Shown one piece after another: positions 5,579-62,640 of a DNA stretch of 62,640 nt (the stretch's first letter is position 1; every line of letters starts with the position of its first letter). The DNA lies in NCBI GenBank assembly GCA_003244145.1, contig QHBM01000136.1:1-62640 (forward strand). Direction: 5' to 3'. The position numbers and the translations under genes were made by a program. The notes under the pieces were generated by a model, which was given only the letters and a program-made list of their open reading frames with translations, searched no databases and was not told the origin of the DNA. This stretch comes from Chthoniobacterales bacterium. GTDB taxonomy: Bacteria; Verrucomicrobiota; Verrucomicrobiia; Chthoniobacterales; UBA10450.

Positions 5579-6343
5579 GGTTTCGGTCTGGGATCGTTAT
5601 TAGTTAATGGGTTGCCGGGACGAAATGAGCGGCGCCCCGAGAATTAGCCCGATAACGATTCGCCAATAACTAGCGAACGCTTTCTGTAAACGGCGGGCAG
5701 GCTGCGGATTTCACGGGATGGAGAAGGATCTGGTCTGGAACGGAGCCGCCGGGATGCGTGCGACGTGGACGGTGAAGCCTGCGAGGTAGCAGGTGAGCTT
5801 TTGGGAGGAAGCGAAATCAATCAGGAAAACAGGAATGGGAGGGCTGTAGCGGCGCTTTGCAAGCGCCGAAATCGACCGCGGATTACGCGGATTTCTCGGA
5901 TGGGGAGGGATCCAATCTGGAAAACCAGGAAGGCCAGGAAAGGGAAATGGATTCAATCAGGAACGGAGCCGGCGGGAGCCGAGCGACGTGGACGGTGAAG
6001 CCTGCGAGGTAGCAGGTGAGCTTTCGGGAGGAAGCGAAATCAAAGCAGGAAAGCAGGAATGGGAGGGCTGTAGCGGCGCTTTGCAAGCGCCGAAATCAAC
6101 CGCGGATTACGCGGATTTCTCGGATGGGGAGGGATCCAATCTGGAAAATCAGGAAAGCAGGAATGGGAGAACTGTAGCGGCGCTTTGCAAGCGCCGAAAT
6201 CAACCGCGGATTACGCGGATTTCTCGGATGGGGAGGGGGAAGTAGGAAATGAGAAGTAAGAAACGTGGAGTTTTCGCAGGAAAACCCAGTAACCTCTAAC
6301 CAATAACCCGCAGACGCTTCGCGATGCGCGCTTTCGGTCAACA
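5579..6343. repeat. Gene-free spacer built from tandem copies of long composite repeats
   Basis: No coding region is credible here. A block of about 100 bp occurs three times (5822-5925, 6046-6149, 6149-6240). It contains GTAGCGGCGCTTTGCAAG with its inverted partner (a short GGCGCTT/AAGCGCC hairpin), then CCGCGGATTACGCGGATTT and CTCGGATGGGGAGG. The first two copies are preceded by a second block of about 75 bp (5741-5819, 5967-6042) containing GACGTGGACGGTGAAGCCTG. The spacer ends with a GACGCTTCGCGATGCG hairpin-like element and AACCAATAAC words at about 6290-6335. The copies differ by few bases, so duplication is recent. Confidence 0.85.
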
Positions 6344-6618
6344 CTAGCCACGATAAATATTGTGCGACCCGATGTCCACCGTGACGACCACATCGGCTTC
6401 GATATAAAAGACCGCGCGCAAGTCCGCCTGAATCTCAACCGCATGCATGTGCGGCCAAAACGTGCAGAAAGTCTATGGATCTTGTGCGTACGTAGGCGAG
6501 GATCAAATGGGTTTGCTTTGAAGATGAGAAAGGCTTTTCTCGCCTTTTCTTGGTCCTGAGGGGACAACTTCGCGAGACTGCGCCAGAACGTGCGAGCTGC
6601 ACGGAAGCGATACTTCAT
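6344..6618 (-). pseudogene. ParE/RelE-type toxin broken by a one-base frameshift
   Basis: The reading frame from ATG at 6618 gives MKYRFRAARTFWRSLAKL, LSPQDQEKARKAFLIFK, and HKIHRLSARFGRT, matching RelE/ParE toxins that recognise their own antitoxin. After FGRT (about 6450) the expected continuation MHAVEIQADLRAVFYIEA then VVVTVDIGSHNIYRG and a stop at 6344-6346 lies in another frame. Restoring one base at that point rejoins the gene. As written the frame runs on into the downstream repeats as unrelated sequence. Its start overlaps the stop of the upstream antitoxin by 4 bp (ATGA), the usual TA arrangement. Either real decay or an assembly indel. Confidence 0.8.
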
Positions 6619-6809
6619 TGATCGCCGGGATATGGTTCATTAAGCGCAGTATCCAGGTCTACGACCCGGCCCGCTTCAATGTCGGCCATTCCCTGCTTGA
6701 ACGATTCAGGAATCCAGGAATCGTCATTTTCGACCACGAACTTGGCCACCTGCGCCCGTTCCTCGGGCGGGAGCGACTTGATCTGCTCGATGATTTCCGC
6801 CGCGCTCAT
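6615..6809 (-). CDS. Small antitoxin of a RelBE/ParDE-like pair
   Basis: Product of 64 residues beginning MSAAEIIEQIKSLPPEERAQ and ending DTALNEPYPGDQ. The N-terminal MSAAExIxxIxxLPxEER segment recurs in two other small genes of this window (25355 and 35381), so they form one local antitoxin family. The acidic C-terminal tail would be the toxin-binding part. It overlaps the broken toxin gene by 4 bp, so it would be translated first. With its toxin frameshifted it may be an orphan. Confidence 0.8.
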   Translation of the reverse strand: MSAAEIIEQIKSLPPEERAQVAKFVVENDDSWIPESFKQGMADIEAGRVVDLDTALNEPYPGDQ

Positions 6810-7499
6810 GGCGAAAGATAACTCCAGAACCCTGATGACGGCAACTCAAGACTTGGGCTTAGACAAATGGGCTGGGTCCACGCTGCCCCGCGCGACCTCT
6901 CAACCCAATAACAGTTAACCATTAACTCGCAGACGCCTCGTGAAGCGCCTGCGTTGACTGTAGGCAATTGTGACCAACAACTGAGCGCGGGACGCGAATG
7001 GCTAGGCGGTGACGCAGCAAAGGTAGCTGGCGCGAGCGCGGGAGAGCGAATGACCAATCAGGAAACCAGGAGGCTAGGAAAAGGAAGACGGAGGTCAGCG
7101 CCGAAAGGGTTCGCGAGCAAGAGGTCAAAGGTCAAAGGTCAGAGGGATCTCCGGGATTCTCAGGTTGAATTATCTCCTCATCCGCGTAATCCGCGTAATC
7201 CGCGTAATCCGCGTAATCCGCGGTCAGAATTTTGGGACGACACGGCGGCCGTCCCTCCAAAGATGATCGGTTTGTAGGGCGTTTCTGTGAAACGCCATCG
7301 CGTTTCTTTTGGGTGGCGTCTGACCCAGACGCCTTACAACACACCGCCCTCTGCGCAACGGCCATTCCCAAACCACTAACGATTAACTAAGAACCCGCAG
7401 ACGCTTCGCGAAGCGTTTCCGCCTGATAACCGATAACCGCGGCGGCGAGCGCCGCCGCTCCCCATGTGCTTGGCTCGGAATGGGTTCGTCATGGCAGAA
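6810..7499. repeat. Gene-free spacer of dispersed short repeats
   Basis: No convincing gene. Seen in order: GTTAACCATTAACTCGCAG with a GACGCCTCGTGAAGCGCC hairpin-like element (about 6915-6955); AGGTCAA heptamers (about 7122-7144); four exact copies of the 9-mer CCGCGTAAT (7182-7217) closed by CCGCGG; a partial GGGACGACACGGCGGCCGTC element (about 7232-7258); GTTTCTGTGAAACGCCATCG (about 7279), which recurs at about 17131; GACGCTTCGCGAAGCGTTTC (about 7393); and GCGGCGGCGAGCGCCGCCGC (about 7440), which recurs at about 8149. Open frames here only read through the repeats. Confidence 0.85.
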
Positions 7500-7799
7500 T
7501 CAAAAGGGAGCTGGAATCATCCCCGCTGAACAGTTCGATCGCAGGAAGAAATGATCAAACAATTCTTCCACCCGAGCCGTCGAACAATTTCCGGTGCGCA
7601 ACCAAATGACCTTTGGTGGGCCGGCGCGCAGAACACTCCGGTCGTGAAAATCCAAATCTTTCGAGACGATGATGAAGCCGCCTTGGGCCGCAAACTCCCA
7701 GACGGCGGCATCAGGCGCAGAGCCTAGTCCGCAATCGTGGACGTGGCAGGCCCCCCAGGGAAAAAGATCAACTTGAACCGCGGATAACGCGGATGGCAC
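7500..7799 (-). pseudogene. DUF5615 PIN-like toxin, N-terminus replaced by an intergenic repeat
   Basis: From about LFPWGACHVHDCGLG onward the product matches the DUF5615 PIN-like family: AAQGGFIIVSKDLDFHDR, then PPKVIWLRTGNCSTARVEEL. In that family the protein normally starts with about 15 more residues carrying the first acidic catalytic position (LLDENLS-like). Here those residues are absent, and the only ATG (7799) lies inside a CCATCCGTGCCATCCGCG repeat that encodes the artificial leader MPSALSAV. The repeat has therefore cut off the real start. The fragment would lack part of the active site, so it is probably inactive. Confidence 0.65.
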
Positions 7800-7920
7800 G
7801 GATGGAGAAGGGAGGAAGGCCGAGGTCAGAAAGCAAAGCTCCTCTTATCCGTGAAATCCGCGTGATCCGCGGTGTAAATCAGTGGGCTATCGTGCGACAG
7901 GTTTTCATCCCACAATAGCT

Positions 7921-10895: not shown

Positions 10896-12581
10896 TTAGC
10901 ACCGCCAGTTGGTAAATAGACCGACGATTAGCTCATTGATCATACGACTGAATAAGCGTCGCTGTATAAAGCCGATCGCGACCAAAGCGATGGCCGCGCC
11001 AATCCAAGTGCTGGGCTCAGGGATGACGGTAAGATCGTTTGTGAGGAGAAGCGAGGTTGGGCCGTAGATAAGCTCATAGCCAGAGGGCAAGTTGTTCTGA
11101 ACCTCAAAAATTCCGGCAACTCCATCGTATGTTGCCAAGGTATACGTGTTTGTGCCCGCGGCTACCGATCCCGCGAAAGTGATGATATTGTTGCTCAAGG
11201 CAGACAGGTCTAATACTCCGGACGTGTGAAGCACGTCACTGAGGGTACCGGAAAGATCCACAAGGAAGGTTGATCCAGCGTTAAACACGACGCGAGTGGC
11301 ATTCAACGTCAACGCGCCAACGGTATTAGCTGCGGCACCTGGGGCGACCGTGCCGCCATCATTAATCGTAACGAGCCGATCTAATGGATTCAGTGGCGCT
11401 GTCACGGAGACGGTGCCATCGCCGCCAAGAGTACCGCCATTATTCACTATAACCGTGCCGCTACCTGTGCCTGATCCGAAGGCATTGTTAATCAGTAGCG
11501 TGCCGCCATTCACAGTCGTGCCGCGGCTGTAAGTGTTGGTTCCGGTTAGAATGAAGGTGCTGCTGCCCTCCTTCAGGACGCCGAGGTTTTGAGACTGTGC
11601 GGTTATTTGGCCGGCGCGGTCGTTAATCTCTCCAAGTAGGGTTACGACGCCGGTGCCGTCTCCAACCAAATTTAGCGTCGTGGAACTAAGCACACCGGCA
11701 CCGAAATTTTTACTGTTAATCTGATTGAAGAAATTGAAGGCACCGGATCCATCCTGCCGAATAGTGCTGCCGAATTGACCGACCGCCAATCTACCGTTGA
11801 AGTTTTCGCCGTTAATCACCTCAGTAACGGAAGCACTGCTGTTAAGGAAAATACTCCCGAAAATAAACCCGTCGTTGTCGCCCAAGTCGTTCGTTGATGC
11901 GTAAGAAGAGGTACCACTACCGCCGAAACGCAAAACAGTGTTGTCGACGGAAGGTGGAGTGCCGTTAGGACTCCACTCGGTGGCAACATCCCAAGCGCCA
12001 GAAGTAGGGGAAGATATTGTTCCCGTGCCGATCCATGAGCTATCAGTAACGAGGCTGGCGATTAACGGTGTCGAAGTCTTCGACGCGCCACTCCCGCTGC
12101 CAGAGGCAAAGCCGGCAACATTGAAGAGGCCGACGTCGAAAGGAGTGTAGCCGCTGGAGACGATGTCGGGCCGCTGCGCTGAGACGGGGTCGCCCGCTCT
12201 GTCGTACCCGATCAGCGGCCGATAAAAACGGTAGGGGCCCATCCCGCCCGGGAGTGCGTTGACCAGCCAGGTTGGGGAAAGGATGAAGCCATCGGCTCTG
12301 AGGCTCAGGCTCGAAGAGGATGAAGGATGAAGGATGAAGTCAGCGGAATCTGAAAAGAAGGAGGATGAGGGTTGAAGGATGAAATCGGACGAGGAGAAGC
12401 GATCGCTGAAATCGAAACTGGCCATCTCTTCGCCGCGCAGGTTGACCGCGCGCGCGGTGGGCGCGGCGAAAGTAGAAAGTAGAAAGGCTAAAGTAGAAAG
12501 CAGAAGCAGTGATCCGCCTACGCTAGAGCTACGGCGCGACGAGCGGAGCTCGGAGGTCGGAGGTTGGAGGTCAGAGGTCAT
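10896..12581 (-). CDS. PEP-CTERM protein with autotransporter-type beta-strand repeats
   Basis: Product of 561 residues. The middle part has glycine/asparagine-rich strands and an autotransporter-associated beta strand motif (GTNTYSRGTTVNGGTLLINN, GTVIVNNGGTLGGDGTV). The C-terminus is VIPEPSTWIGAAIALVAIGF then IQRR, the exosortase sorting signal, followed by an unusual extra tail LFSRMINELIVGLFTNWRC. The N-terminus is strange: about 100 residues are encoded by repeat words. MTSDLQPPTSELRSS comes from GGAGGTC units, the signal-peptide core LLLLSTLAFLLSTF from GTAGAAA units read on the other strand, and FILQPSS and FILHPSS from GGATGAA units. A natural role would be a surface or matrix protein anchored or released by the exosortase encoded at 21642. 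Confidence 0.8.
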   Translation of the reverse strand: MTSDLQPPTSELRSSRRSSSVGGSLLLLSTLAFLLSTFAAPTARAVNLRGEEMASFDFSDRFSSSDFILQPSSSFFSDSADFILHPSSSSSLSLRADGFILSPTWLVNALPGGMGPYRFYRPLIGYDRAGDPVSAQRPDIVSSGYTPFDVGLFNVAGFASGSGSGASKTSTPLIASLVTDSSWIGTGTISSPTSGAWDVATEWSPNGTPPSVDNTVLRFGGSGTSSYASTNDLGDNDGFIFGSIFLNSSASVTEVINGENFNGRLAVGQFGSTIRQDGSGAFNFFNQINSKNFGAGVLSSTTLNLVGDGTGVVTLLGEINDRAGQITAQSQNLGVLKEGSSTFILTGTNTYSRGTTVNGGTLLINNAFGSGTGSGTVIVNNGGTLGGDGTVSVTAPLNPLDRLVTINDGGTVAPGAAANTVGALTLNATRVVFNAGSTFLVDLSGTLSDVLHTSGVLDLSALSNNIITFAGSVAAGTNTYTLATYDGVAGIFEVQNNLPSGYELIYGPTSLLLTNDLTVIPEPSTWIGAAIALVAIGFIQRRLFSRMINELIVGLFTNWRC

Positions 12582-12718
12582 GTGTGAGAAAGGATGAGGG
12601 ATGAAGGATGAGGGATGAAAGAAGCAAAGAGGTCAGGGTTCCTGCGGTTGCTGATTGTTCATGGCTTCCTGGTTTCCAGATTGAAGGCTGATGTTCGTCC
12701 GTGGCGGAAAATATTGCG

Positions 12719-13029: not shown

Positions 13030-14235
13030 AAGGGGAGGTTGGCATAAAAGTGAAAATTAGAAAATTACAAAGTGGAAACCGGAGATCAGAGGTTCGCCAC
13101 GGCGAATCCGTCCGTTGGCGGATCGGAGGTTGAAGTCGGGTCGGAGGTTGAAGTCGGGTCGGAGGTTGAAGTCGGGTCGGAGGTTGAATGTCACTAGGGA
13201 AAAGTACGGGGTTGAATCGCACGGAACTCACGTATCTGAGCGGTTTGGTGGAGCGGTGTCAACGAAATTTCCAGAATTATCTGAGAAAAGTTATTCACAC
13301 GTAAATTGTCCTTCGGACAAAGTAGAAAGTAGGAAGTAGAAAGTAGAAATTTGCCGAGGGGCGAAAAGGCTGAAAACCTGACAAACTGAACAGCTGAAAT
13401 GGAGCGGGATCGGGGGCTAAAAGGCTGAAAAGCTGACAAACTGAAAAGCTGAAATGAAGCGGAACGTGCCTGCCTGTTTCAGTTTTCAGCGTTTCGTTGA
13501 CCAGAAGTCGGTTACCGCGGATTACGCGGATGGCACGGATAGAATCGGGAGGCGGATGGAATCTGGAAACCATGAAGCCAGGAAACGAAGACGGAGGTCG
13601 GATGTCAGAGGTCAGAGGTCAGAGGTCAGGATTTCGGCCTGTCAGCGTTTCAGCTTTTCGTTGACCAGAGGTCGGAAGGGGAGAGGCGACCGCGGATGAC
13701 GCGGATTTCCCGGATGAATGGAGCCGCGGGGACGCGAGCGACATGGACCAAAGCCCGAAGGGTGAGAGAGCGGGAGCGGCCGAATCAATCTGGAAGCCAG
13801 GAAGCCAGGAAAATTTTCTTAACCATGGACGAACACAGATTTGTTTTCGGGAGATCGTGGTTTCCTGGGTTGCTGATTGAATTATCTTCTCATCCGAGAA
13901 ATCCGCGTTATCCGCGGTGAAGAAAATCCGAAGGCGAGGACGACCGCGGATTACGCGGATGGCACGGATGGGGGTCCCGTCCCGGCGGCTCCGTTCCTGA
14001 TTGAATCCTCTTCCCTTTCATGGGTTCCTGGGTTGCCGATTGAATTATCTTCTCATCCGAGAAATCCGCGTTATCCGCGGTGAAGAAAATCTGAAGGCGA
14101 GGACGACCGCGGATTACACGAATGGCACGGATAGGGGAAGGAGGATGGAGGTCAGTAATGGAGGGATGGGTGCCGTCCCGTCCCATTATTTTGGGACGAC
14201 ACGGAGGTCGTCCCTCCAAGCTGAACCAATAACGA
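13030..14235. repeat. 1.2 kb gene-free spacer of dense short repeats
   Basis: No gene seen on either strand. It holds 3.8 copies of the 18-mer TCGGAGGTTGAAGTCGGG (13123-13190); GTAGAAA heptamers (about 13320-13350); CTGAAAAG-type octamers (about 13365-13455); CCGCGGATTACGCGGATGGC copies (about 13516, 13690, 13944, 14106) and inverted copies (about 13890-13920, 14056-14082); GGTCAGA heptamers (about 13590-13632); a block around GAGCCGCGGGGACGCGAGCG (about 13724-13780) nearly identical to one at about 17358-17417; and the GGAGGGATGGGTGCCGTCCC hairpin element (about 14158-14217). Confidence 0.85.
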
Positions 14236-19143: not shown

Positions 19144-19377
19144 TTTGGAAGCCAGGAGGCCAGGAAACGAAGACGGAGGTCGGAGGTCGGAGGTCAGAGG
19201 TCAGTAATGGAGGGACGGGCTCCGTCCCGTCCAATTATTTTTGGGACGACACGGAGGTCGTCCCTCGCATATTAGCCGACAACTCCGAAAGGGTTTCGCC
19301 AATATCTGCGCGTTCCTCGGCCGGGATCAGCGATCCCGGCTACAATCGCCGCTACAGCTTCCCCATCCGGCAACTTT
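19144..19377. repeat. Spacer of heptamer and hairpin repeats
   Basis: Contains GGAGGTCGGAGGTCAGAGGT (about 19175-19203), a full GGAGGGACGGGCTCCGTCCC hairpin element with its GGACGACACGGAGGTCGTCC arm (19208-19266), and CCGGGATCAGCGATCCCGGC (about 19320-19340), a perfect palindrome that recurs at about 23388 and 23424. No gene. Confidence 0.85.
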
Positions 19378-21210
19378 CTACTTCGGTCTGATCGTTTCGA
19401 TCAGTCCCGCTTCCTCCGGAAGCAATCGCTTCACGTCCACTTCGCGCAATTCCGTCGCCGCGTCCTCGGCCCGGCCGTTCGCGGCCAGGACGGCGGCGTG
19501 GACCGCGAGCGCGGAGGGAGTAAGCGCACCGCGCGAAACTTGAATGCTCGCATAGGCCTCCATCGCGTCACTGAATTTCCCCAAACGCAATCGGGCCAGC
19601 GCGAGCAAAGTCCGGTGCGGCAGGCTGGTCGGTTCGCGTTCGGCTAATCTCGCAGCAAGCTGCTCGATCGTTATCAGTTCTTCGTTATTGGTTATTGGTT
19701 CCGACTTCTCGTTTTCTACTTTCTCCTTTCTACTTTCTACTTGCGACTCCTGCTGCATCAGCAGGAGAAGTCGCGTATACGCTTCGTCGTTTTGGACCGC
19801 GGGGTCGTTAGGCCAGATCGGCAGCATCTCCGCCAAAACCGCGTGGATTTTTTTCGTCTCGCCCGTCATCTGCGCGAGGCGCAACCGGCCCTGATGGGCG
19901 ACGCGCAGCTTCGGCGATTCGGCGACGGCTTCGTCGTAGGCGGCGCGCGCCACCTCGATCACGCCGTTTTTTTCCGCATAACCGGCGAGCGTGACCAGCT
20001 TGCCCGGATCGCCGCGGGCCGCTTCGAGCGCGCGCTGCCAATTATTTTCGGCGGCCGCTTTTTCCCCGAGCTGCGCGTTGCAACGCGCTAGATACATTTT
20101 TTGCACGAACGGATCGAGCGGGTAGCGGTCGCGATCGAGCAGTTCCTTAATTTCTTTCCACCGGCCCAGGCCGCCGAGCGCATCGACGTACTGCAGGAAG
20201 AGGTCGCGAGCCTGGAGCGCTCGTTCGAGCGGGATCGAGTCGAGGACGCGTTGGAATTCGCCTTTGCCATTCAACCAGGTCGCCAGCGGCGTGGTCTCCT
20301 CCGGCGGCCCGTCTTTCCATTGCACGATCGCTTTCGCGAGGAGTTCTTCGCGCGCTTCGGGCTGCTCGCGAATTTTCAAATCGACCGCGAGCAACTTTTG
20401 CGGCGCGCGGGCGAGGGGATGGGCCTCGAGCTTCTGCGACAGCTCGGGCCCGGCGATCGGGAAATTCTCGGGAAGCTTTTCGGGTGAAAGCGCGGTCTGC
20501 GCGAGAACGGTGAGGGCATCGAGTCCGGCGGCATCGTTGGTGTCGGCGATTTTTCTTAACCACGACCAGGCTTCGCCGCGCCACGATTCGTTCCCGGCGG
20601 AAATGGCCAGGTCGAGCAGGGCCGCCTGCAATTTCTCGCGGCCGCTCGCGCCGGCGTCGTCGAAAACTTTTTGGAGCGCGTCGTGCGCATCGATCGGGGC
20701 GCCTTGCCGGATGGAAAGCTGGGCCGAGAGCAATTGGTCGAGCGCCGTGACGGCGCCGTTCGCGCCACTGAGCAAAGCGCGGATCGCGCGGGTGGCGCGG
20801 GTATCGTCGCCCGCGAGCAGCGCGATGGCCGCTTCATCGTTGAGATCGGCGCGGGTGAGACGGGTGTGTTGTTCGAGGCGATCCCAGAATTCGAGCGCCT
20901 GCGGCTGGCGCGTGCGCGAAAGAAAACGCGCGATGGCGCGGATGGCTTCGGGTTCTTCCGGCCACAATTGATACGCGGCGGAGGCTTCCTTGCGCGCATC
21001 GTTCCACTGCTCTTTTTCCAAAAGCGCGAAGGCGGTGCGTGCGTGGCGGCGCGCCTGCCAGGCCTTGATTCCATGCAGGACGGGCCGCCCGCCGAAAACT
21101 CCGCCGAGGGCGAGCAAGCTCGCGAGCACAAGTGCGATGAGCAAGCGCCGCCGCTTCCGGGTACGGAGCCGCAGCTCCTCATCGGTCAGCATGAAATCGT
21201 CAGAGCGCAC
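19378..21210 (-). CDS. TPR-like membrane-anchored protein of the exosortase locus
   Basis: Product of 610 residues. A basic cytoplasmic N-terminus (RLRTRKRRR) is followed by one transmembrane helix (about residues 22-41, LLIALVLASLLALGGVFGG). The rest is alpha-helical with TPR-like helix pairs (AFALLEKEQWNDARKEASAA, YQLWPEEPEAIRAIARFL, AEALNxx-type turns, TLLALARLRLGKFSDAMEAY). Such proteins often accompany exosortase and exopolysaccharide genes as assembly scaffolds; the function here is inferred. At about residues 485-510 a stretch QVESRKEKVENEKSEPITNN then EELIT is encoded by GTAGAAA and GGTTATN repeat words (19680-19757), probably an inserted linker between helices. Downstream on the same strand of the exosortase and the S23 gene. 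Confidence 0.75.
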   Translation of the reverse strand: MRSDDFMLTDEELRLRTRKRRRLLIALVLASLLALGGVFGGRPVLHGIKAWQARRHARTAFALLEKEQWNDARKEASAAYQLWPEEPEAIRAIARFLSRTRQPQALEFWDRLEQHTRLTRADLNDEAAIALLAGDDTRATRAIRALLSGANGAVTALDQLLSAQLSIRQGAPIDAHDALQKVFDDAGASGREKLQAALLDLAISAGNESWRGEAWSWLRKIADTNDAAGLDALTVLAQTALSPEKLPENFPIAGPELSQKLEAHPLARAPQKLLAVDLKIREQPEAREELLAKAIVQWKDGPPEETTPLATWLNGKGEFQRVLDSIPLERALQARDLFLQYVDALGGLGRWKEIKELLDRDRYPLDPFVQKMYLARCNAQLGEKAAAENNWQRALEAARGDPGKLVTLAGYAEKNGVIEVARAAYDEAVAESPKLRVAHQGRLRLAQMTGETKKIHAVLAEMLPIWPNDPAVQNDEAYTRLLLLMQQESQVESRKEKVENEKSEPITNNEELITIEQLAARLAEREPTSLPHRTLLALARLRLGKFSDAMEAYASIQVSRGALTPSALAVHAAVLAANGRAEDAATELREVDVKRLLPEEAGLIETIRPK

Positions 21211-21260
21211 GCGGAAGAAAGTAGAAAGTAGAAAGTAGGAAGTAGGAAGTAGGAACGAAG

Positions 21261-21605
21261 CTACTGCTTTAGCTTTTTTCCGATGGCGCTAAATATCGCG
21301 AGCAGCTCGGAGGATTCTTTGAGCAAAAGTCGCGCGTGATCATCGTCGCGCACGCCTGACTCGATCAAAAGCTCGATCCAGTATTCGGTTTCCGAGGCTT
21401 CTTTTTGGACCGTTCCGATCTTATTTGCGAAATCTGCGCGTGACACGCCGCGATTCGCTTCCCGGTAGTTGGCGCCAATCGAAGTGGCCGATCGCAACAA
21501 TTGTCGACCGAGGATGTCGGCTTCCCGTGTGCGCGGCAATGCCGCCGTGAACTTGATAACTGCCAATGAAAACCGTTTGGTGCGCTGCTCCAGATCCTTC
21601 TGCAT
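21261..21605 (-). CDS. Four-helix bundle protein, S23 / IVS-like
   Basis: Product of 114 residues: RTKRFSLAVIKFTAALPRTR, EADILGRQLLRSATSIGANY, REANRGVSRADFANKIGTVQ, KEASETEYWIELL. The LxxQLLRSATSIGANYxEA...KEAxETxYWLxLL pattern defines the four-helix protein family first found in intervening sequences of 23S rRNA genes. Here it is a free-standing gene between two genes of the exosortase locus and bordered on both sides by GTAGAAA heptamers. It is one of three different members in the window (others 30882 and 36252). Molecular role unknown. Confidence 0.88.
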   Translation of the reverse strand: MQKDLEQRTKRFSLAVIKFTAALPRTREADILGRQLLRSATSIGANYREANRGVSRADFANKIGTVQKEASETEYWIELLIESGVRDDDHARLLLKESSELLAIFSAIGKKLKQ

Positions 21606-21641
21606 TTCGTTTCCTGTTTCCTACTTCGTAATTCCTACTTT

Positions 21642-23330
21642 CTACTTTCTACTTTCGGAGATGACCATCTCGCGCACGAGCGCGGCGAACCGCGCCTCGG
21701 CGGCCTGGTCGTCGATCGGGCGGGTATTGAGCAGGGCGAACTCCAGCACTTGCTGGCCCAGGTTGCGCACGCCTCGGCGCACCATGCGGGCGCGCGCTTT
21801 CAACGACCAATCCGGCTGCGCGCCTCCTGTCATTTGCAAATCGGGCCGCGCCTCCTCGCGGTGCACTTTGTCTTCCTGTAAACAAAAAAAAGTGTGCACG
21901 ACGGCGTTGCCGCTTTCCTTCCGGAAGCTGATATGCCGCGCCGGCAATGCGATGCCGTCACGCGCGAGATAAGTCCTCATCCCGTGATCGGCGATTTGCT
22001 TCCAGCCCGTGCTGGGCAGACAAATGTCCGGCCGATGCGCGCGCGCGCGAACCACGCTGGAGCTGCCCGGGTTCCAGCGAAAGAAAAAGAGATAATTCGT
22101 GGCGGAAGATCCGGCCGCATCGGCGTCGCTGGTTTTCCAAACCACTTCGCGACCGGTATCGAAGCGAAGAGTTGAGCGAACGGCCTCGTCGATTTTGAGT
22201 TCGCGAAACCCATTCGCGTTTTCCGGTGCACGCACGCTCCAGGCGGAACGCGGAATCAGGTTGCGTTCGTGTGCGCGATACCAGCCTTCGACGCCGATCT
22301 CGACCGCGAGAAGCCAGGCCAGGGAAAGGATGAAGGAGGAAGGATGAAGGATGAAGGGGAGGGCAGTCGGAGGTCGGAGGTTCGCCACGGCGAATCGGTC
22401 CTCTGGCGGATCAGAGGTCGGAGGTCGGATTCCGCCTTCCGCCTTCCGCCTTCCGCCTTTGCCCAGCGCCGCAGCAAGCAGCAGCGAGCCGCCGAACACA
22501 ACGCCAACGATCGTGTATCCGGCGAAATCGTGCCAGCGCTCCACCGCGGAGACACCCTGGTGCGCCGCGACCCAGACGAGGAAAAAGGCGCGCGCAAAAT
22601 TCGCCACGACCGCGATGGCGAGCGCGCCGAAGACCAGCGCGAATCGTCTGCCAATCGAGAGGCGTTTCAGTTCGCCGAAAAGCAAGCCGATCATGAGCGA
22701 GGTTTGGAGGGAGCGCACACCGCTGCACGCTTCGTTCACACCCACGAGTCCGGTGCTGACGCGGATGAGATTGCCCTCGAGTTGCGCGGGGACGCCGCAG
22801 AGGGTGATCGCTTCGGTGGCGGCGGCCGCGACCGTGCGCATCAAACCTTGCACAATCGGTTCTTCAATCGGTGAAATCCACGGCACCGCCACCAGGAAAA
22901 ACAAAATTGGAAAACTGAAATGCTTCACCCAGGCCCATCCGCGCGCGAGATAGATGACAACGAAAGTGATCGCAATGACCGCGAAAGCGTGGACCCATCC
23001 CAGCGGCCGCCAATCCGGATTCGCGACCTCAAAAAGGCGCACCGGGAAAAGAATGAGCAGTGCAAGCACCACCGCGCCGATAACCAGCGCGCGCTGTTGT
23101 TTTGAAATCCGCAATCCGCAATCCGCATTCCGAAATTCTTCTCGCGTCTCCCAGCGCAGCCAAAAAAGATAGAGAACGAAGATCGGAACGAACCACCCAT
23201 AGCTGTATTGGTCGTTGGCCGACCACTCGCCGCTGAGTTGCCGGCAGAGAATGAACCAAAGCGCGAGCAGGAGGAGGAGCGCAGGCGCGAGACGGGTGAG
23301 CGAATGCGATTTCATCGTCGCTGAGTTCAA
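21642..23330 (-). CDS. xrt: Exosortase with fused EpsI-like C-terminal domain
   Basis: Integral membrane protease-like enzyme that cleaves PEP-CTERM sorting signals. Product of 562 residues. The exosortase domain has about eight helices and the conserved triad is visible: Cys202 in NEACSGVRS, Arg247 in NFARAFF and His267 in WHDFAGY. The C-terminal part (about 340-562) is EpsI-like (GWYRAHERNLIPRSAW, HRPDICLPSTGWKQI). Two stretches are foreign: FRNADCGLRISKQQ after helix 2, written by GCGGATT heptamers, and about residues 291-336 (KGGRRKAEGG, RPPTSD, PFILHPSSFIL) between the two domains, written by GGCGGAA, GGAGGTC and GGATGAA words. They lie in loops and keep the frame. MKSHS at residue 6 is an alternative start. 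The substrates are probably the PEP-CTERM proteins at 10896 and 14236. Confidence 0.92.
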   Translation of the reverse strand: MNSATMKSHSLTRLAPALLLLLALWFILCRQLSGEWSANDQYSYGWFVPIFVLYLFWLRWETREEFRNADCGLRISKQQRALVIGAVVLALLILFPVRLFEVANPDWRPLGWVHAFAVIAITFVVIYLARGWAWVKHFSFPILFFLVAVPWISPIEEPIVQGLMRTVAAAATEAITLCGVPAQLEGNLIRVSTGLVGVNEACSGVRSLQTSLMIGLLFGELKRLSIGRRFALVFGALAIAVVANFARAFFLVWVAAHQGVSAVERWHDFAGYTIVGVVFGGSLLLAAALGKGGRRKAEGGIRPPTSDPPEDRFAVANLRPPTALPFILHPSSFILSLAWLLAVEIGVEGWYRAHERNLIPRSAWSVRAPENANGFRELKIDEAVRSTLRFDTGREVVWKTSDADAAGSSATNYLFFFRWNPGSSSVVRARAHRPDICLPSTGWKQIADHGMRTYLARDGIALPARHISFRKESGNAVVHTFFCLQEDKVHREEARPDLQMTGGAQPDWSLKARARMVRRGVRNLGQQVLEFALLNTRPIDDQAAEARFAALVREMVISESRK

Positions 23331-26733: not shown

Positions 26734-26888
26734 ACCAAAGTAGGAAAGTAGGAAAGTAGGAAGTAGAAAGTAGGAAGTAGAAAGAGAAGAAGGGCTCACT
26801 CCGCAGGCTTTACCGCCCATCTCGCGCCGCTCCCGCGGGCTCCATTGATACTTTCTAATTTAGCCTTTTTACTTTCTACTTTTCCCCA
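26734..26888. repeat. GTAGGAA/GTAGAAA heptamer spacer before the carbamoyltransferase gene
   Basis: AAGTAGGAAAGTAGGAAAGT and further GTAGAAAGTAGGAAGTAGA units fill about 26740-26785. On the far side the reverse-direction words TTTACTTTCTACTTTTCCCC (about 26865-26886) end only 3 bases before the ATG at 26889, so they form the 5' untranslated region. There is no Shine-Dalgarno motif in that stretch. Confidence 0.85.
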
Positions 26889-28697
26889 ATGACCATCCTT
26901 GGCCTTAACGCTTATCATGGCGATTCCGCGGCTTGTTTGATCAAGGACGGGAAGCTTGTCGCCGCGGCGGAGGAGGAGCGTTTTCGCCGGATCAAACATT
27001 GGGCGGGCCTGCCGACGCAGGCGATCGATTACTGTCTGCGCGAAGGCGGCATCGCGCTTCATGACATCGATCATATCGCCGTGAATCGAAAACCGGGCGT
27101 GAATAACTGGCGCCGACTCGCTTTCGTTCTGCGGCATCGCCCCGATCCGCGGCTCATGCTGCAGAAGGTGCGGAACATTCGCAGCGCCTCGTCTGTGAAA
27201 GACGCTCTCGAGCGCGCCTACAAGGTTTCGCTCCGCGCACAGCTCCATCACGTCGAACACCATCTCGCGCATCTCGCTTCGGCCTTCCTTGTTTCCGGCT
27301 TTGAGGAAGCCGCCTGCATTTCGATCGATGGGTTTGGCGACTTTGCCAGCACTGCCATGGGGTCGGGGCAGGGGAGCGGGATCGAGATCGATCAGCGCGT
27401 TTATTTTCCGCACTCGTTAGGCATTTTTTATTCGGCCATCACCCAATTCATCGGCTTCCGCAATTTCGGCGATGAATACAAGGTGATGGGTCTCGCGCCT
27501 TACGGTGAGCCGCACTACCTAGAGCAAATGCGCGAACTCGTGCGCGTTCAGCCGGACGGAACTTTCAAACTGAACCTAAAATATTTCCGGCATCATACCG
27601 ACAACGTTTCCTACAGTTGGAACGATTGCGCGCCGAAAGTGGGAACGCTTTACACGCGCAAATTATCCGAGCTGCTCGGCCCGGCCCGCGCCGAGCACGA
27701 TCCATTGGAGCAACGCCACAAGGATCTCGCCCGCTCCATTCAGGCCATGTACGAAGAGGCCTTCTTCGCCCTGCTCAATGCCCTGCACAAAAAGCGCCCA
27801 TCCGTGAACCTGGCTTTGTCGGGTGGCTGTGCCATGAACTCAGTGGCGAACGGGAAGGTTTATTTGCGCACACCGTTCCGGAAAATGTATCTGCCCGCCG
27901 CGGCCGGCGACGCCGGCGGCGCGATCGGAGCCGCTGCCGTTGTCGCGGCGAAGTTGAAATTCGAAATTCGAAATTCGAAAACCTCGGCATTTTCACCTTC
28001 CACCTTTGCACTTTCTAACACTGCTTCTGCTTATCTCGGTCCCTCTTTCTCAAACGCTGAAATCGCAGAGCTTCTGAAATTACGAGAAGCTGAAATTAAA
28101 GAAGCCGGCTGCACGATCTCAGATTTTCAGAATTTCAGCGGTTCAGCTTTTTCCCGCGAACTCTGCACCCGCACGGCCGAGGCGATCGCGGACGGCAAAG
28201 TGGCCGGCTGGTTTCAAGGCCGGATGGAATGGGGGCCGCGCGCGCTCGGCAACCGCTCAATCCTGGGCGACCCGCGCCGGGCCGACATGAAAGAGATCCT
28301 GAACTCGAAGATCAAACGGCGGGAATCGTTCCGTCCTTTCGCGCCTTCGATTTTGCGCGAAGCGGTCGCGGAATGGTTCGAGCAGGAAGACGATGTGCCG
28401 TTTATGATGGAAGTGTTTCAAATCCGTCCCGAGAAACGCGCGTTGATTCCAGCCGTCACGCACGTGGATGGCTCCGGCCGATTACAAACCGTGCATCGTG
28501 AGACCAACCCTCTTTTCCACCTTCTACTTTCTACTTTCTACTTTCAAACTGGCGTCCCCATGGTCCTCAACACTTCCTTTAACGAAAACGAGCCCGTGGT
28601 CTGCCGTCCCGAAGAAGCGCTCGATTGCTTTCTCCGAACGCGGATGGACGTTCTTGTCCTGGGAAGTTTTTTTATAGAGAGAACGAATCATCCCTGA
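26889..28697 (+). CDS. NodU/CmcH-type carbamoyltransferase
   Basis: Transfers a carbamoyl group from carbamoyl phosphate to a hydroxyl of a sugar or other small molecule. Product of 602 residues. N-terminal domain: MTILGLNAYHGDSAACLIKD, VAAAEEERFRRIKHWAGLP, HHVEHHLAHLASAF (metal-binding histidines), GFGDFAS. C-terminal YrdC-related domain: GWFQGRMEWGPRALGNRSIL, RESFRPFAPSIL, VLNTSFNENEPVVCRP. Three repeat-derived segments are in frame: about residues 354-377 (KFEIRNSK, ATTCGAA words), 395-424 (TGAAATT and TTTCAG-type words) and 540-554 (LLLSTFYF, TTTCTAC words). They lie between conserved motifs. In this locus the target is probably a sugar of the exported polymer. Confidence 0.92.
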   Translation: MTILGLNAYHGDSAACLIKDGKLVAAAEEERFRRIKHWAGLPTQAIDYCLREGGIALHDIDHIAVNRKPGVNNWRRLAFVLRHRPDPRLMLQKVRNIRSASSVKDALERAYKVSLRAQLHHVEHHLAHLASAFLVSGFEEAACISIDGFGDFASTAMGSGQGSGIEIDQRVYFPHSLGIFYSAITQFIGFRNFGDEYKVMGLAPYGEPHYLEQMRELVRVQPDGTFKLNLKYFRHHTDNVSYSWNDCAPKVGTLYTRKLSELLGPARAEHDPLEQRHKDLARSIQAMYEEAFFALLNALHKKRPSVNLALSGGCAMNSVANGKVYLRTPFRKMYLPAAAGDAGGAIGAAAVVAAKLKFEIRNSKTSAFSPSTFALSNTASAYLGPSFSNAEIAELLKLREAEIKEAGCTISDFQNFSGSAFSRELCTRTAEAIADGKVAGWFQGRMEWGPRALGNRSILGDPRRADMKEILNSKIKRRESFRPFAPSILREAVAEWFEQEDDVPFMMEVFQIRPEKRALIPAVTHVDGSGRLQTVHRETNPLFHLLLSTFYFQTGVPMVLNTSFNENEPVVCRPEEALDCFLRTRMDVLVLGSFFIERTNHP

Positions 28698-30763: not shown

Positions 30764-30826
30764 GCGCTCGATTGCTTTATGGGGCATTTCTTCGTCGAAC
30801 GAAAAAATGAAATGCTAAGGAGCTGA
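30764..30826 (+). pseudogene. Internally deleted end of a carbamoyltransferase (remnant 5)
   Basis: GCGCTCGATTGCTTTATGGG and the next bases encode ALDCFMGHFFVERKNE, equivalent to EALDCFLRTRMDVLVLGSFF with about ten residues missing, then ERxNE, after which the frame reads into GAAATGCTAAGGAGCTGAAA repeat words. Only the extreme end of the gene remains. Confidence 0.6.
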
Positions 30827-30881
30827 AATGCTGAGAACCTGAAAGCCTGGAAGGGAACGCTGAAAACTGAAAAGCTGAGAT

Positions 30882-31244
30882 ATGCGGTTGTCCCCAGAGC
30901 TAAGAGAGCGCACGAAGCGTTACGCTTCAGCAATCGTTCGACTGTACGTGCAGCTGCCCCGGTCGCGGAAGGAAGTAGAAGTGCTCGGGCATCAATTATT
31001 GCGATCCGGCACTTCCGTCGCTGCGCAGATCAGAGAGACCTCGCGCGCGCGGTCCGATTCGGAATTCTGTTCGAAAATAGACGGCGCCCTGCAAGAAGCT
31101 GATGAGTCGCAGCTCTGGCTTGAGTTACTGAAAGAAGATTGCGGTATCAGCGGAGAGAAAATCGACACATTGCACGGCGAAACAGATCAGTTGATCGCGA
31201 TTTTTGTTACGATGGTGAGCAAAACAAGACGCCACGTAGGTTAA
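30882..31244 (+). CDS. Four-helix bundle protein, S23 / IVS-like
   Basis: Product of 120 residues: MRLSPELRERTKRYASAIVR, LYVQLPRSRKEVEVLGHQLL, RSGTSVAAQIRETSRARSDS, EFCSKIDGALQEADESQLWL. The LGHQLLRSGTSVAAQxRE...LQEADESQLWLELL pattern is the S23 family. It is diverged from the other two members. It is bordered on both sides by octamer repeats of the CAGTATTT / GCTGAAAA type. Role unknown. Confidence 0.85.
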   Translation: MRLSPELRERTKRYASAIVRLYVQLPRSRKEVEVLGHQLLRSGTSVAAQIRETSRARSDSEFCSKIDGALQEADESQLWLELLKEDCGISGEKIDTLHGETDQLIAIFVTMVSKTRRHVG

Positions 31245-31370
31245 AGCTTTCAGCGTCTCAGTATTTCAGTATTTCAGTATTTCAGTATTTCAGTATTTCA
31301 GCATTTCAGCATTTCAGCGTCTCCATTTCCGTCTTGCCATCCGGACCACAGTCAGGCACATCGTTCTGAG
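31245..31370. repeat. CAGTATTT octamer tandem array
   Basis: Seven contiguous 8 bp units at 31259-31314: five CAGTATTT and two CAGCATTT, framed by CAGCGTCT. The same octamer words occur inverted or scattered at about 13365-13455, 30810-30880, 35285-35320 and inside the carbamoyltransferase gene at about 28125-28150. Confidence 0.9.
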
Positions 31371-61023: not shown

Positions 61024-61192
61024 AGCAAGAAGTAGGAATTACGAAGTAGGAAGTGGGGCAGAGGTCCCGCCTTCGCCGCAGGCTCCGGCGTGGCAAGCAG
61101 AGGTCGGAGACGATGAGCGAGCTTTCCATTGGGCGGTACTGATGCTTTCCTGCGTCCATGGCCGGTGAACTGATAACGGATAACCAATAACC
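61024..61192. repeat. Short spacer with repeat words
   Basis: Contains GAAGTAGGAATTACGAAGTA (about 61028), a GAGGTCGGAGACGA word and AACTGATAACGGATAACCAA (about 61170-61188), of the GTAGGAA, GGAGGTC and GGTTATN kinds. The last of these ends 4 bases before the GTG start of the next gene. Confidence 0.75.
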
Positions 61193-62548
61193 GTGCGCTG
61201 GCTTCGCGATCTCGCACGCTGGCTTTTCCTCGGCACGCTCGCGGTGGCGCCGTGGCTTTATGGCGGGACGACGGCGTGGTCGATCGAGTTAATCGATGGG
61301 ATGCTCGGCCTGGCGCTCACGCTTTGGGTGGCTTCGCTCCTGGTCGATCGCCGGTGGCCTTTGGTGCCGCGGGCGCTTGTCATCATCGCGGGACTCATCC
61401 TGTTGCAAGGCTGGTGGATGGTCGCCAACGCGCACGCCATCTACGATTTTACCTTCCGCTCCTTCGTTCCCGTTCATTCCCTTTTTCCGAATGGTCCGGG
61501 ATCGGCGGATTACGTTCTCAGTCTGGCCTGGATGCTCCGTGCGACCGCGTTGCTGGGCACAGTCTGCCTGGCGGCGGAGTTGGCGCAGCGGCCGGTCTGG
61601 CTCCTGCGGCTCTGGTATGCGATCGCAATCGCGGGAGGGTCAATTGCGTTGCTCGGATTGATCCAGAAAGGGACGGGCGCGCAGGCGATTTTTTGGCAGA
61701 AAGCTTTGCCACGGGAGTCGGAGACTTTTTTTGCCAGCTATTACTACCACGCCAACGCGGGTGCTTTCTTGAATTTGGTGCTGCCACCGATGGCGGGATT
61801 GGCTCTTTGGACACTGACGCGTCCAACGTCCCCACTGGCACGCGCTACTTGGTTAACCACACTGGTCCTGGTCGCGATTGCCGTGCTCTCGAATACTTCG
61901 CGCATGGCGCAAGCGGTCGGCGCGATGCTCGCTGTGGCGATGGTGGCGGGGGTCGCACGGCCCGCAATGCGAATGGTGGCGCGGATGGAGAAACGAATGG
62001 TGCTCGTGGGAATTTTCGTCGTGGTGGTGACAGCGGTCGCGGTCGCGCAAGCGGCGCATCTCGATCAACCTATTCTGCGCTGGCAACAGCTTACGAAGCA
62101 GTTGCCGGTGGATGCGCGCTGGATGGCGGACCGTGCCGCGCTCGATGCGGTTGGGGATGCAAGCTGGCTGGGATTCGGGCCGGGAACCTTTCAAGCGATC
62201 TTCCCGCACTATCAGAAGGCGTTCGGGAATGGGCTCGGTGGCACGTGGAGGTTTCTGCACGAGGATTATCTGCAAACGATTCTGGAATGGGGCTGGCTCG
62301 GCAGCATTCTGATCGCCGCATTATTTTTCGGCGGGATCGCCGTCGCGATCCGGAGCTACTTTGGAGCGGCAGACTGGAGCAATCGTCAACGCATTTTGTT
62401 GCCGTGCGTCGTGCTCGCGCTTGCTGGCGTGGCTATTCACGCCCTTGTCGATTTTCCGCTCCAGATTTTATCGATCCAACTTTTCGTGGCCACCTATCTC
62501 GGCGTTTGCTGGGGAAGCGGGACTTGGAAAGTAGGAAGTAGGAAGTAG
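61193..62548 (+). CDS. O-antigen ligase-like membrane protein (Wzy_C family)
   Basis: GTG-start product of 451 residues with about twelve hydrophobic segments. The motif [20 protein letters not shown] and the loop [40 protein letters not shown] (H-x-D-Y-L-Q) are those of WaaL/Wzy-type ligases and polymerases. The frame ends TWKVGSRK, encoded by the first units of a GTAGGAA heptamer array, which also supplies the TAG stop. Function is either ligation of the glycan to its final carrier or polymerisation. Confidence 0.87.
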
Positions 62549-62640
62549 GAAGTAGGAAGTAGGAAGTAGGAAGTAGGAAGTAGCCGCCTATGCACAAGGC
62601 TACGGCGCGCCATGGGGAAGTAGCCTCCTTCGCTGAAGCT
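62531..62640. repeat. GTAGGAA heptamer array at the window edge
   Basis: Seven perfect GTAGGAA units plus GTAG at 62531-62583, the longest perfect heptamer array in the window. The adjacent bases CCGCCTATGCACAAGGCTAC and GAAGTAGCCTCCTTCGCTGA continue as another repeat phrase to the window end. No gene begins here. Confidence 0.93.

What the first reader, a model, noticed from the sequence alone, without database searches (positions are those of the whole stretch)
5579..62640. A vocabulary of degenerate heptanucleotide tandem repeats fills the intergenic space
At least seven unrelated words, each 7 bp long, recur in tandem in many spacers: GTAGAAA/GTAGGAA, GGAGGTC/AGGTCAA, GGATGAA, GGCGGAA, GCGGATT, ATTCGAA and GGTTATN. 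Octamers (CAGTATTT, CTGAAAAG-like) are a second class. A fixed unit length with a variable word suggests a process that multiplies 7-mers whatever their sequence. Heptameric short tandem repeats (STRR) are known from heterocystous cyanobacteria; I do not recall a description in this group.
Basis: partly seen in the sequence, partly recalled or inferred. Interest (0 to 1): 0.88.

Follow-up and report, generated by a model that had tools for sequence, protein, structure and literature searches.

The report
Heptamer hairpins paired with S23 genes
In these soil bacteria a share of the short seven-letter DNA repeats are the two mirror-image arms of hairpins, and a small gene of unknown function (S23) usually sits inside such a hairpin, here and in several other bacterial groups, which links two old puzzles and makes both testable.

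Summary
The 7-bp arrays are real: 14 lag-7 runs of 11 or more matches in the window, 0.0 in shuffles. They also occur, more sparsely, in the rest of the genome and in relatives. A heptamer excess in bacteria is already in print. Each site has its own word. Arms co-evolve (57 of 70), words follow S23 lineages to other sites, and S23 is under purifying selection (median dN/dS 0.05). Gene-less hairpins with one such word are dispersed like MITEs (14 of 20 loci in G006). Y1 transposase genes carry non-periodic arms; reverse transcriptases were found in only 3 of 8 genomes. Best reading: an IVS-like S23 hairpin element outside rRNA with non-autonomous relatives; how it copies is not shown. Only 13 of 44 window arrays have a strong inverted partner.

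The parts
21216..21255 (+). Left heptamer arm (AAAGTAG/AAGTAGG, about 5 units) of S23 element 1
   Evidence: Inverted match score 68 to 21618-21656, period 7
21261..21605 (-). S23 gene 1, PF05635 23S_rRNA_IVP, 114 aa
   Evidence: Pfam E 8.2e-19, above cut-off; profile of the three window S23s matches 2rld and 2gsc
21618..21656 (-). Right heptamer arm of S23 element 1 (CCTACTT/CTACTTT)
   Evidence: RNA fold of 21200-21675 pairs the arms around the ORF, z -4.94
30808..30880 (+). Left octamer arm (GCTGAAAT/CTGAAAAG) of S23 element 2
   Evidence: Inverted to 31246-31327, scores 34-44
30882..31244 (+). S23 gene 2, PF05635, 120 aa
   Evidence: Pfam E 1.5e-15, above cut-off
31246..31327 (-). Right octamer arm (TTTCAGTA) of S23 element 2
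   Evidence: RNA fold z -5.03
36228..36251 (+). Left degenerate arm of S23 element 3 (AACGTCGGAAAGTAAAACGTAA)
   Evidence: Inverted score 27 only (L215); fold not better than shuffles, z -0.46
36252..36617 (+). S23 gene 3, PF05635, 121 aa
   Evidence: Pfam E 1.3e-31, above cut-off
36619..36664 (-). Right degenerate arm of S23 element 3
   Evidence: Read by eye; weak, see left arm
26737..26882 (.). Gene-less inverted GTAGGAA pair (26737-26784 / 26849-26882, 64 bp apart)
   Evidence: Inverted score 31; fold of 26730-26879, which cuts the last bases of the right arm, z -1.13, weak
13370..13660 (.). CTGAAAA arms (13370-13399, 13416-13454) with inverted partner 13626-13660
   Evidence: scores 27 and 31; random places reach 22 in 5% and 33 in 1% of trials
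13691..14081 (.). 9-mer CGCGGATTA and 8-mer GGAAGCCA inverted pairs (13691-13717/14053-14081; 13792-13811/14016-14043), no S23 gene between
   Evidence: scores 48 and 31
22326..22463 (.). GGATGAA array with inverted TTCCGCC array inside the exosortase ORF
   Evidence: score 28, borderline; ORF is Exosortase_EpsH
7180..7803 (.). 9-mer ATCCGCGTA array (7180-7222) with inverted partner 7777-7803
   Evidence: score 34
12317..12619 (+). Single-armed 7-mer arrays (GGATGAA, GTAGAAA, GGAGGTC) in and beside the ORF 10896-12581
   Evidence: no inverted partner of score 22 or more within 700 bp
13319..13349 (+). Single-armed GTAGAAA array
13594..13629 (+). Single-armed GAGGTCA array
19174..19202 (+). Single-armed CGGAGGT array
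   Evidence: best inverted score 21
19684..19742 (.). GTTATTG and TTTCTAC arrays inside the TPR ORF 19378-21210
27956..28545 (.). GAAATTC, CTGAAATT and TTTCTAC arrays kept in frame inside the carbamoyltransferase ORF 26889-28697
   Evidence: weak inverted scores 20-22
62529..62583 (+). AAGTAGG array, 7.9 exact copies, 57 bp from the contig end
   Evidence: any partner to the right would lie beyond the contig

Best explanation
The heptamer vocabulary is, at least in part, the arms of small palindromic elements that lie mostly in spacers between co-oriented genes. The fullest form is [array]-S23 gene-[reverse-complement array]: a stem of about 32 bp made of 4-5 degenerate 7-mers (sometimes 6-, 8- or 9-mers) with the S23 reading frame in the loop. 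This is the layout of a ribosomal RNA intervening sequence (IVS) with its S23 ORF, but outside rRNA. Gene-less hairpins with the same kind of arms are non-autonomous relatives, and single arrays are remnants of them or of the copying process. SHOWN: the S23-arm association, its period of 7, in-silico stems, co-evolution of the two arms, inheritance of the word with the S23 lineage at different sites, frequent co-orientation with neighbours (no baseline measured), purifying selection on S23, one dispersed family of 81-134-bp palindromes, and filled and empty states at the same spacers. INFERRED: (1) the transcript or single-stranded DNA folds in the cell and S23, a pentameric ring in a solved relative (PMC4990558, introduction), binds the stem, perhaps one protomer per 7-mer; (2) the arms are re-copied from each other in the folded form (template switching plus slippage), which multiplies 7-mers and changes words in concert; (3) copies spread at DNA level with help in trans from host or element functions not identified here. 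The confidences given to this and to the rivals are not exclusive of each other.
For: Three of three PF05635 genes in the window lie between inverted arrays, two strongly and one weakly. Genus census: inverted arm score of 28 or more in 56 of 68 S23 genes; other genera of the family 22 of 24; outside the family 18 of 30; control ORFs 9 of 2,014. Direct-orientation matches at the same threshold: 5, 0, 4 and 55. Period 7 in 43 of the 56, 20 of the 22 and 10 of the 18 strong arms. Arms median 31.5 nt, 4.4 units, near 32 nt whatever the period (82 arms). S23 co-oriented with both neighbours in 50 of 64, 16 of 22 and 18 of 28. RNA fold of window elements 1 and 2: z -4.9 and -5.0. At orthologous sites an arm matches its own partner better than other species' partners in 54 of the 62 elements with own score 24 or more, and in 57 of all 70. 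Words follow the S23 lineage across different sites: mean arm score 17.0 for the 136 pairs of 50% protein identity or more, 0 of 500 permutations as high, none of these pairs at score 24 in the opposite orientation. Median dN/dS 0.05, n=14. One AATGACG family: 14 of 20 loci in G006 are 81-134-bp palindromes (ends set by the word itself), and one further locus is an S23-bearing copy with the same words. The gap-pgk, pilB-pilC and pilC-pilin spacers hold different hairpins, S23 elements or nothing in different species (partly by eye). Real sequence has 29 periodic inverted pairs with arms of 16 nt or more in 1.6 Mb; three shuffles have 0.
Against: S23 number and array density do not track: G007 has 2 S23 genes but 55 lag-7 runs per Mb, G001 has 6 and none in 48 kb. 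Dispersed copies of S23 arm words are only 2.4 times denser in the same genome than in others (25.8 against 10.6 per Mb), and only 38% of 42 arms had any 13-mer match elsewhere in the same genome's sample (27% for other genomes). G004 has 34 AATGACG matches, but none of its 11 fetched S23 genes (of 13) bears exactly that word. Some periodic inverted pairs have gaps of 190-1,500 bp and no S23 gene. S23 dS values are about 1-3 at shared sites (12 of 14 pairs), so most S23 copies are old residents rather than active movers. No target-site duplication is evident by eye in the 14 elements. Window element 3 does not fold better than shuffles. Some 'different sites' may be unrecognised orthologous sites; the same-genome check has only 13 pairs of 50% identity or more (mean 16.0 against 8.5). 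The set from outside the family came from genomes picked for a GTAGRAA array. I have no binding, expression or transposition data.
Confidence: 0.62

Rival explanations
1. Ordinary long simple-sequence repeats: slipped-strand mispairing with a 7-nt preference set by the polymerase amplifies any heptamer in weakly constrained DNA. S23 genes merely sit where such repeats are tolerated.
For: 7-nt excess with changing words; heptamers are the commonest long repeat class in most genomes studied and a polymerase-contact explanation was proposed (Mrazek 2007, as summarised in the introduction of PMC4679880); 31 of 44 window arrays lack a strong inverted partner.
Against: Does not predict inverted arms around one gene family in 56 of 68 cases against 9 of 2,014 control ORFs, co-evolution of arms about 350 bp apart, words inherited with S23 lineages, or a dispersed palindrome family. 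It may still act inside arms.
Confidence: 0.15
2. Selected RNA hairpins: spacers inside operons need a stable stem (mRNA processing, attenuation or stability). Any inverted repeat serves, so different families replace each other, and S23 is a resident gene that uses or regulates the stem rather than part of a mobile element.
For: The gap-pgk spacer holds a hairpin in 8 of 8 species but of different families; most stems tested are strong; co-orientation with neighbours; S23 under purifying selection and long resident.
Against: Empty spacers exist: pilC-pilin in 4 of 8 species, pilB-pilC in 1 of 8 (by eye). Same-word palindromes are dispersed in one genome. Selection for pairing alone does not need tandem 7-mers or lineage-specific words.
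Confidence: 0.3
3. REPIN/RAYT: the palindromes are mobilised by Y1 (RAYT) transposases and the S23 gene is a passenger.
For: Y1 transposase genes occur in 8 of 8 genomes of the genus, and inverted repeats of score 28 or more flank 18 of the 26 I could analyse, of 30 fetched, of 51 matches.
Against: The arms around Y1 genes are not periodic in any of those 18, whereas 48 of the 56 strong genus S23 arms are periodic. In this sample the two proteins go with different palindrome families. Help in trans is not excluded.
Confidence: 0.15
4. A retroelement or DGR-like system: S23 is related to Avd, the DGR accessory protein, so a reverse transcriptase copies the arms.
For: PF05635 resembles Avd according to PMC10053308 (passage read); concerted copying of arms would fit templated synthesis.
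Against: Reverse transcriptases were found in 3 of 8 genus genomes and not in G000 or G006, which have 11 and 13 S23 matches; G006 also has the AATGACG family. The assemblies are incomplete.
Confidence: 0.06

Closest known systems
rRNA intervening sequences (IVS) with an S23 ORF, as in Coxiella and Leptospira 23S rRNA (PMC4990558; abstract and introduction read)
   Same: Stem-loop bordered by complementary sequences, S23 ORF in the loop, gene-less and ORF-bearing versions, sporadic distribution, called selfish
   Different: These lie in protein-gene spacers, not rRNA (no Rfam match in the window; only tRNAs in 20 S23 loci from outside the family); the stems are tandem heptamers; up to 13 matches per genome in the genus; S23 under purifying selection here, reductive evolution in Coxiella
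REPIN/RAYT systems (PMC3116915 and PMC3733652; passages read)
   Same: Dispersed short palindromes, singlets and doublets, with one protein gene carrying the same repeats; mostly extragenic; predicted hairpins
   Different: The partner protein is S23, not a Y1 transposase; arms are tandem 7-mers; the analysed Y1 genes of these genomes carry non-periodic palindromes
Heptanucleotide hairpin of the cyanobacterial tRNA-Leu(UAA) intron P6b region (PMC3488679; one passage read)
   Same: [quoted passage not shown] copy number and word class differ
   Different: Inside an intron at one locus; no S23 gene in the passage read
Heptameric STRRs and long simple-sequence repeats: cyanobacteria and Xanthomonas GGGNATC (PMC4692102; abstract, introduction), Beggiatoaceae TAACTGA (PMC4679880; abstract, introduction), Geobacter four-heptamer elements (PMC2700814; passages)
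   Same: Tandem 7-mers, largely intergenic, few words per genome
   Different: Described in what I read mainly as direct repeats of one or few words; pairing of inverted arrays around S23 is not mentioned there
DGR accessory protein Avd (PMC10053308; passage read)
   Same: Stated homology to PF05635 and its solved structure 2GSC
   Different: No reverse transcriptase match in G000

Membership tests
PF05635 (23S_rRNA_IVP, S23, four helix bundle) | Profile match above curated cut-off | tested here: met
   68.2, 57.7 and 109.4 bits against 33.8; matches solved chains 2rld and 2gsc
rRNA intervening sequence (IVS) | Lies within a 16S or 23S rRNA helix | tested here: not met
   No Rfam match in the window; only tRNAs in 20 of the 30 S23 loci from outside the family
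rRNA intervening sequence (IVS) | Complementary borders forming a stem with S23 ORF in the loop | tested here: met
   not for window element 3
rRNA intervening sequence (IVS) | Excision by RNase III | not testable with these tools
   needs RNA experiments
REPIN/RAYT | Y1 (RAYT) gene flanked by the same repeat family | tested here: not met
   18 of 26 analysed Y1 genes have inverted flanks, none of them periodic; 21 of 51 matches not fetched
REPIN/RAYT | Dispersed inverted doublets with singlets as remnants | tested here: met
   14 two-ended, 4 single-armed, 1 nested and 1 S23-bearing of 20 AATGACG loci in G006; one word family only
MITE | Terminal inverted repeats, many short copies without a gene | tested here: met
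   81-134 bp, ends set by the word; one word family only
MITE | Target-site duplications | tested here: inconclusive
   None evident by eye in 14 elements; no systematic test
MITE | Mobilised by an identified transposase with the same ends | tested here: inconclusive
   The S23-bearing copy has the same words, but S23 is not known to be a transposase
Long simple-sequence repeats by slippage | 7-nt unit excess independent of word | tested here: met
Long simple-sequence repeats by slippage | Arrays arise singly, without a paired inverted array | tested here: inconclusive
   13 of 44 window arrays are paired, the rest not; S23 arms are paired
DGR | Reverse transcriptase beside Avd | tested here: not met
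   No PF00078 match in G000; template/variable repeats not searched

The most novel reading that the evidence does not exclude
A new class of bacterial mobile or self-maintaining element, spread over many phyla: an S23 ring protein and its own heptamer-arm hairpin, which together re-copy and homogenise short words. The scattered heptamer repeats described earlier (cyanobacterial STRRs, Nostoc intron hairpins, Beggiatoaceae and Xanthomonas heptamers) and the rRNA intervening sequences would be parts or relics of it, and S23 would be the missing gene that makes heptamer arrays.
Probability: 0.3. Interest if true: 0.95.

Novelty: new variant of a known kind. Interest (0 to 1): 0.8.

Why it matters
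Two old open questions meet here: why heptamers dominate bacterial tandem repeats, and what S23/IVP proteins do (no known function, according to PMC4990558). If S23 goes with heptamer-arm hairpins, both become directly testable with binding and knockout experiments in culturable hosts. It would also show how word families turn over in concert, give a second palindrome-plus-protein system beside RAYT/REP, and warn that some 'simple repeats' in genomes are folded elements inside operons.

Tried and rejected
Considered and set aside: a misbinned contig (arrays also occur elsewhere in the genome; the exosortase has 67% and 59% matches in two same-genus genomes); one shared word as an ancient family (words differ by locus). 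The flank test that stopped at the S23 start and stop codons was replaced by one reaching 30 nt into the 5' end and 75 nt into the 3' end of the ORF, because arms run into the S23 C-terminus. Both versions are reported: the bounded test with 200-nt flanks gave 40 of 68 at score 28 or more (no control run in that call), and the 150-nt bounded test gave 34 of 61 against 0.5% of 1,174 control ORFs. Genome-specific words as proof of an autonomous/non-autonomous link: weak. A reverse transcriptase as copier: no match in 5 of 8 genomes. RAYT as owner of the arms: arms not periodic. A ring-size argument (5 x 7 nt): the median is 4.4 units and arm length stays near 32 nt for other periods, so it is only an idea.

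Selections behind the counts: genus S23 loci are 68 of the 73 matches (the five not fetched were all below the family cut-off). Family loci are 24 best-scoring matches of other genera, as returned, which lists many more. The 30 loci from outside the family are the ones returned, from 28 genomes chosen because they hold a GTAGRAA array, so biased; one (L284) is labelled Verrucomicrobia and one (L282) only 'bacterium', the rest are labelled as other phyla; eight elements with own score under 24 are left out of 54 of 62; with them it is 57 of 70. Y1 genes: 30 of 51 matches fetched, 26 analysable; 21 pairs run, 14 with dS between 0 and 3, first 100 codons only; one of ten stretches in each of G006 and G007, the four of G031 and three of the 40 of G000 were chosen at arrays. 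Gene limits were set by simple rules, not a gene finder. The first generic inverted-repeat scan was swamped by runs of N and was redone. The first flank prints mishandled minus-strand loci and were corrected.

Full report
WHERE IT IS. The window is contig C52 of a 3.63-Mb, 173-contig, 88%-complete assembly. A genome of the same genus is the record PMSN01, 'Spartobacteria bacterium palsa_1379', and one of the same family is JACDGS01, 'Chthoniobacterales bacterium' (identical letters); Spartobacteria are Verrucomicrobiota. The window holds an exosortase, PATR-repeat ORFs, carbamoyltransferase, asparagine synthase and a sugar transferase: by inference an exosortase and surface-polysaccharide region.

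THE OBSERVATION. Counting runs where base i equals base i+p for at least 11 positions, the window has 14 runs at p=7 and 10 at p=14, against 0.0 and 0.1 expected from ten third-order Markov shuffles. With runs of 10 or more, in 581 kb of the rest of the genome lag 7 gives 11 runs and lag 14 gives 12; lag 6 gives 13 and lags 4, 5, 8, 10 and 11 give 0 to 2 (I take lags 6, 12 and 18 as codon multiples). Densities of lag-7 runs differ: 255 per Mb in the window, 19 in the rest of the genome, 92 and 55 in G006 and G007, 25 and 16 in G002 and G005, 0 in 48 kb of G001 (some stretches were chosen at arrays, see the section on selections). The commonest words differ between genomes: AATGACG in G006, AACGCCG in G007, AGGATGC in G055. 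In the window the arrays are densest from 5.8 to 31.4 kb, and 17 of 44 lie in ORFs, some kept in frame inside the carbamoyltransferase.

THE OVERLOOKED FACT. Two small ORFs (21261-21605 minus; 30882-31244 plus) and a third (36252-36617) match PF05635, 23S_rRNA_IVP, above cut-off, and each lies between arrays in opposite orientation; the third pair is degenerate. The genome has 11 PF05635 matches, 9 above cut-off. With the own genome included, 8 of 8 genomes of the genus and 59 of 61 sampled from the family have matches, and 0 of 14 control genomes. Reading flanks locus by locus, S23 genes at different sites have different words, each mirrored on the other side (for plus-strand loci, 42, 56): for example a perfect 32-bp inverted repeat made of four 7-mer units, not all alike, around L226.

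TESTING IT. I aligned the upstream flank with the reverse complement of the downstream flank (150 nt outside, 30 and 75 nt inside the ORF). A score of 28 or more is reached by 56 of 68 S23 genes of the genus, 22 of 24 from other genera of the family, 18 of 30 from outside the family, and 9 of 2,014 non-S23 ORFs. In direct orientation the numbers are 5, 0, 4 and 55. The period of the strong arms is 7 in 43 of 56, 20 of 22 and 10 of 18. The narrower test bounded by the start and stop codons gave 40 of 68 with 200-nt flanks; its 61-locus predecessor with 150-nt flanks gave 34 of 61 against 0.5% of 1,174 controls and 5.3% of mismatched pairs. The set from outside the family came from genomes picked for a GTAGRAA array, but most words there are different ones, and it includes isolates such as Niastella soli and Calothrix parasitica. 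A scan for any periodic inverted pair with arms of 16 nt or more in 1.6 Mb finds 29 in real sequence and 0 in three shuffles. Two classes stand out: pairs about 360-400 bp apart that hold an S23 gene, and gene-less pairs 20-80 bp apart; others have gaps of 190-1,500 bp and no S23 gene.

ANATOMY. Over 82 arms the median is 31.5 nt (quartiles 29-38) and 4.4 units, and it stays near 32 nt when the unit is 6, 8 or 9 (few arms). S23 points the same way as both neighbours in 50 of 64, 16 of 22 and 18 of 28 cases where both could be called; I measured no baseline for other genes. The RNA of window elements 1 and 2 folds into a long stem around the ORF (z -4.9 and -5.0); element 3 does not beat shuffles (z -0.46). 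Six gene-less elements of relatives and of the own genome fold strongly (z -5.4 to -8.5), the window pair at 26737-26882 does not (z -1.13, with its right arm slightly cut).

HOW IT BEHAVES IN TIME. At orthologous sites an arm matches its own partner better than partners of other species in 54 of 62 elements with own score 24 or more (mean 43.6 against 34.3) and in 57 of all 70: the arms change together. Across different sites, arm similarity rises with S23 protein identity: 29% of 34 pairs at 65% identity or more and 15% of 102 pairs at 50-65% share a word at score 24 or more, against about 8 of 1,721 pairs below 40%; 0 of 500 permutations reach the observed mean, and none of the pairs at 50% or more reaches 24 in the opposite orientation. 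Within single genomes the trend is the same but small (13 pairs, mean 16.0 against 8.5). At one shared spacer seven genomes carry S23; in G000 and G004 it belongs to another lineage, sister to the lineage at the L218 site, and carries words that look related to that lineage's. S23 is under strong purifying selection (median dN/dS 0.05, 14 usable of 21 pairs), with dS about 1-3 in 12 of the 14, so many copies are old. The spacers tell the same story: between the glyceraldehyde-phosphate dehydrogenase gene and pgk, three species have an S23 element with 6-mer arms, three a 9-mer hairpin, one an 8-mer hairpin and one an unrelated hairpin; the pilB-pilC and pilC-pilin spacers hold different palindromes, and look empty in 1 and 4 of 8 species (by eye). 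In G006 the AATGACG word marks 20 loci: 14 palindromes of 81-134 bp (ends set by the word), one S23-bearing copy, four single arms and one nested in another hairpin.

MECHANISM. The layout equals that of rRNA intervening sequences, a stem with or without an S23 ORF (PMC4990558, abstract and introduction read), transferred to spacers between protein genes and with stems built of 7-mers. I infer that the stem forms in RNA or single-stranded DNA, that S23 rings bind it, and that fold-back copying plus slippage keeps both arms alike while words drift. What moves the element is unknown. Y1 transposases exist in all eight genomes, but 0 of the 18 analysed with inverted flanks have periodic arms. Reverse transcriptases were found in only three of eight.

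AGAINST. Only 13 of 44 window arrays have an inverted partner of score 28 or more, and between 1% and 5% of random places reach that. S23 counts and array density do not track. The same-genome enrichment of arm words is weak. G004 has AATGACG arrays without a fetched S23 gene of that exact word. The PF05635 frequency in array-free genomes of other phyla was not measured. A purely selected-hairpin explanation stays open.

WHAT IS IN PRINT. Heptamer excess and a polymerase-contact idea (Mrazek 2007, as told in PMC4679880, introduction read); Xanthomonas and Nostoc G-rich heptamers (PMC4692102, abstract and introduction read); Geobacter four-heptamer elements (PMC2700814, passages); heptamer hairpins in the Nostoc tRNA-Leu intron (PMC3488679, passage); REPINs and RAYTs (PMC3116915, PMC3733652, passages). 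In searches for S23/IVP/four-helix-bundle names, alone or with repeats, and for heptamers with Verrucomicrobia, cyanobacteria or hairpins, I saw no title, abstract start or passage that links S23 genes to heptamer arrays. The library lacks most subscription papers and all preprints, so this is weak evidence of novelty. A Flavobacterium table lists a four helix bundle gene between guanylate kinase and a nicotinate-nucleotide adenylyltransferase (PMC5524665, passage), perhaps a similar operon setting.

Noticed in passing
window 5737-6237, 7240-7300, 17100-17400, 19200-19280: Non-periodic palindromes and dispersed repeats (e.g. the 224-bp direct repeat, GTAGCGGCGCTTTGCAAGCGCCG, GGGACGACACGGAGGTCGTCCC), which look like the kind that flanks Y1/RAYT genes in related genomes.
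   Followed up: partly
window 28697-28830 and 29590-30010: A second, partial copy of the carbamoyltransferase 3' end, each copy followed by the same degenerate CTTTNNN heptamer stretch; looks like a local duplication with later genes between.
   Followed up: no
window 28899-29538, 34734-35140, 37810-38440: Several small toxin-antitoxin-like gene pairs (PIN-type; nucleotidyltransferase/HEPN-type, by eye) in the same repeat-rich stretch; names recalled, not tested.
   Followed up: no
L369 upstream of pgk (G007): A non-periodic hairpin with GTCATTCCGAGCGAAGTCGAGGAATCCC in the same spacer where relatives have word hairpins.
   Followed up: no
G055: 123 matches to the reversed control pattern, GATGAARGATGAARGATG, so the control happened to be another word of the vocabulary.
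   Followed up: no
L388 (G006:C47): An AATGACG array lying inside a GTGACGA hairpin: looks like nested elements.
   Followed up: no
L299, L290: tRNA genes within 3 kb of S23 elements in a planctomycete and a Sulfurovum.
   Followed up: no
window 10896-12581 and 14236-16983: Two ORFs with PATR repeats and PEP-CTERM-like C-termini (by eye) whose tails overlap GGTTATT-type heptamers; short tails of the same kind recur without a full gene near 7.4, 8.1 and 9.4 kb.
   Followed up: no
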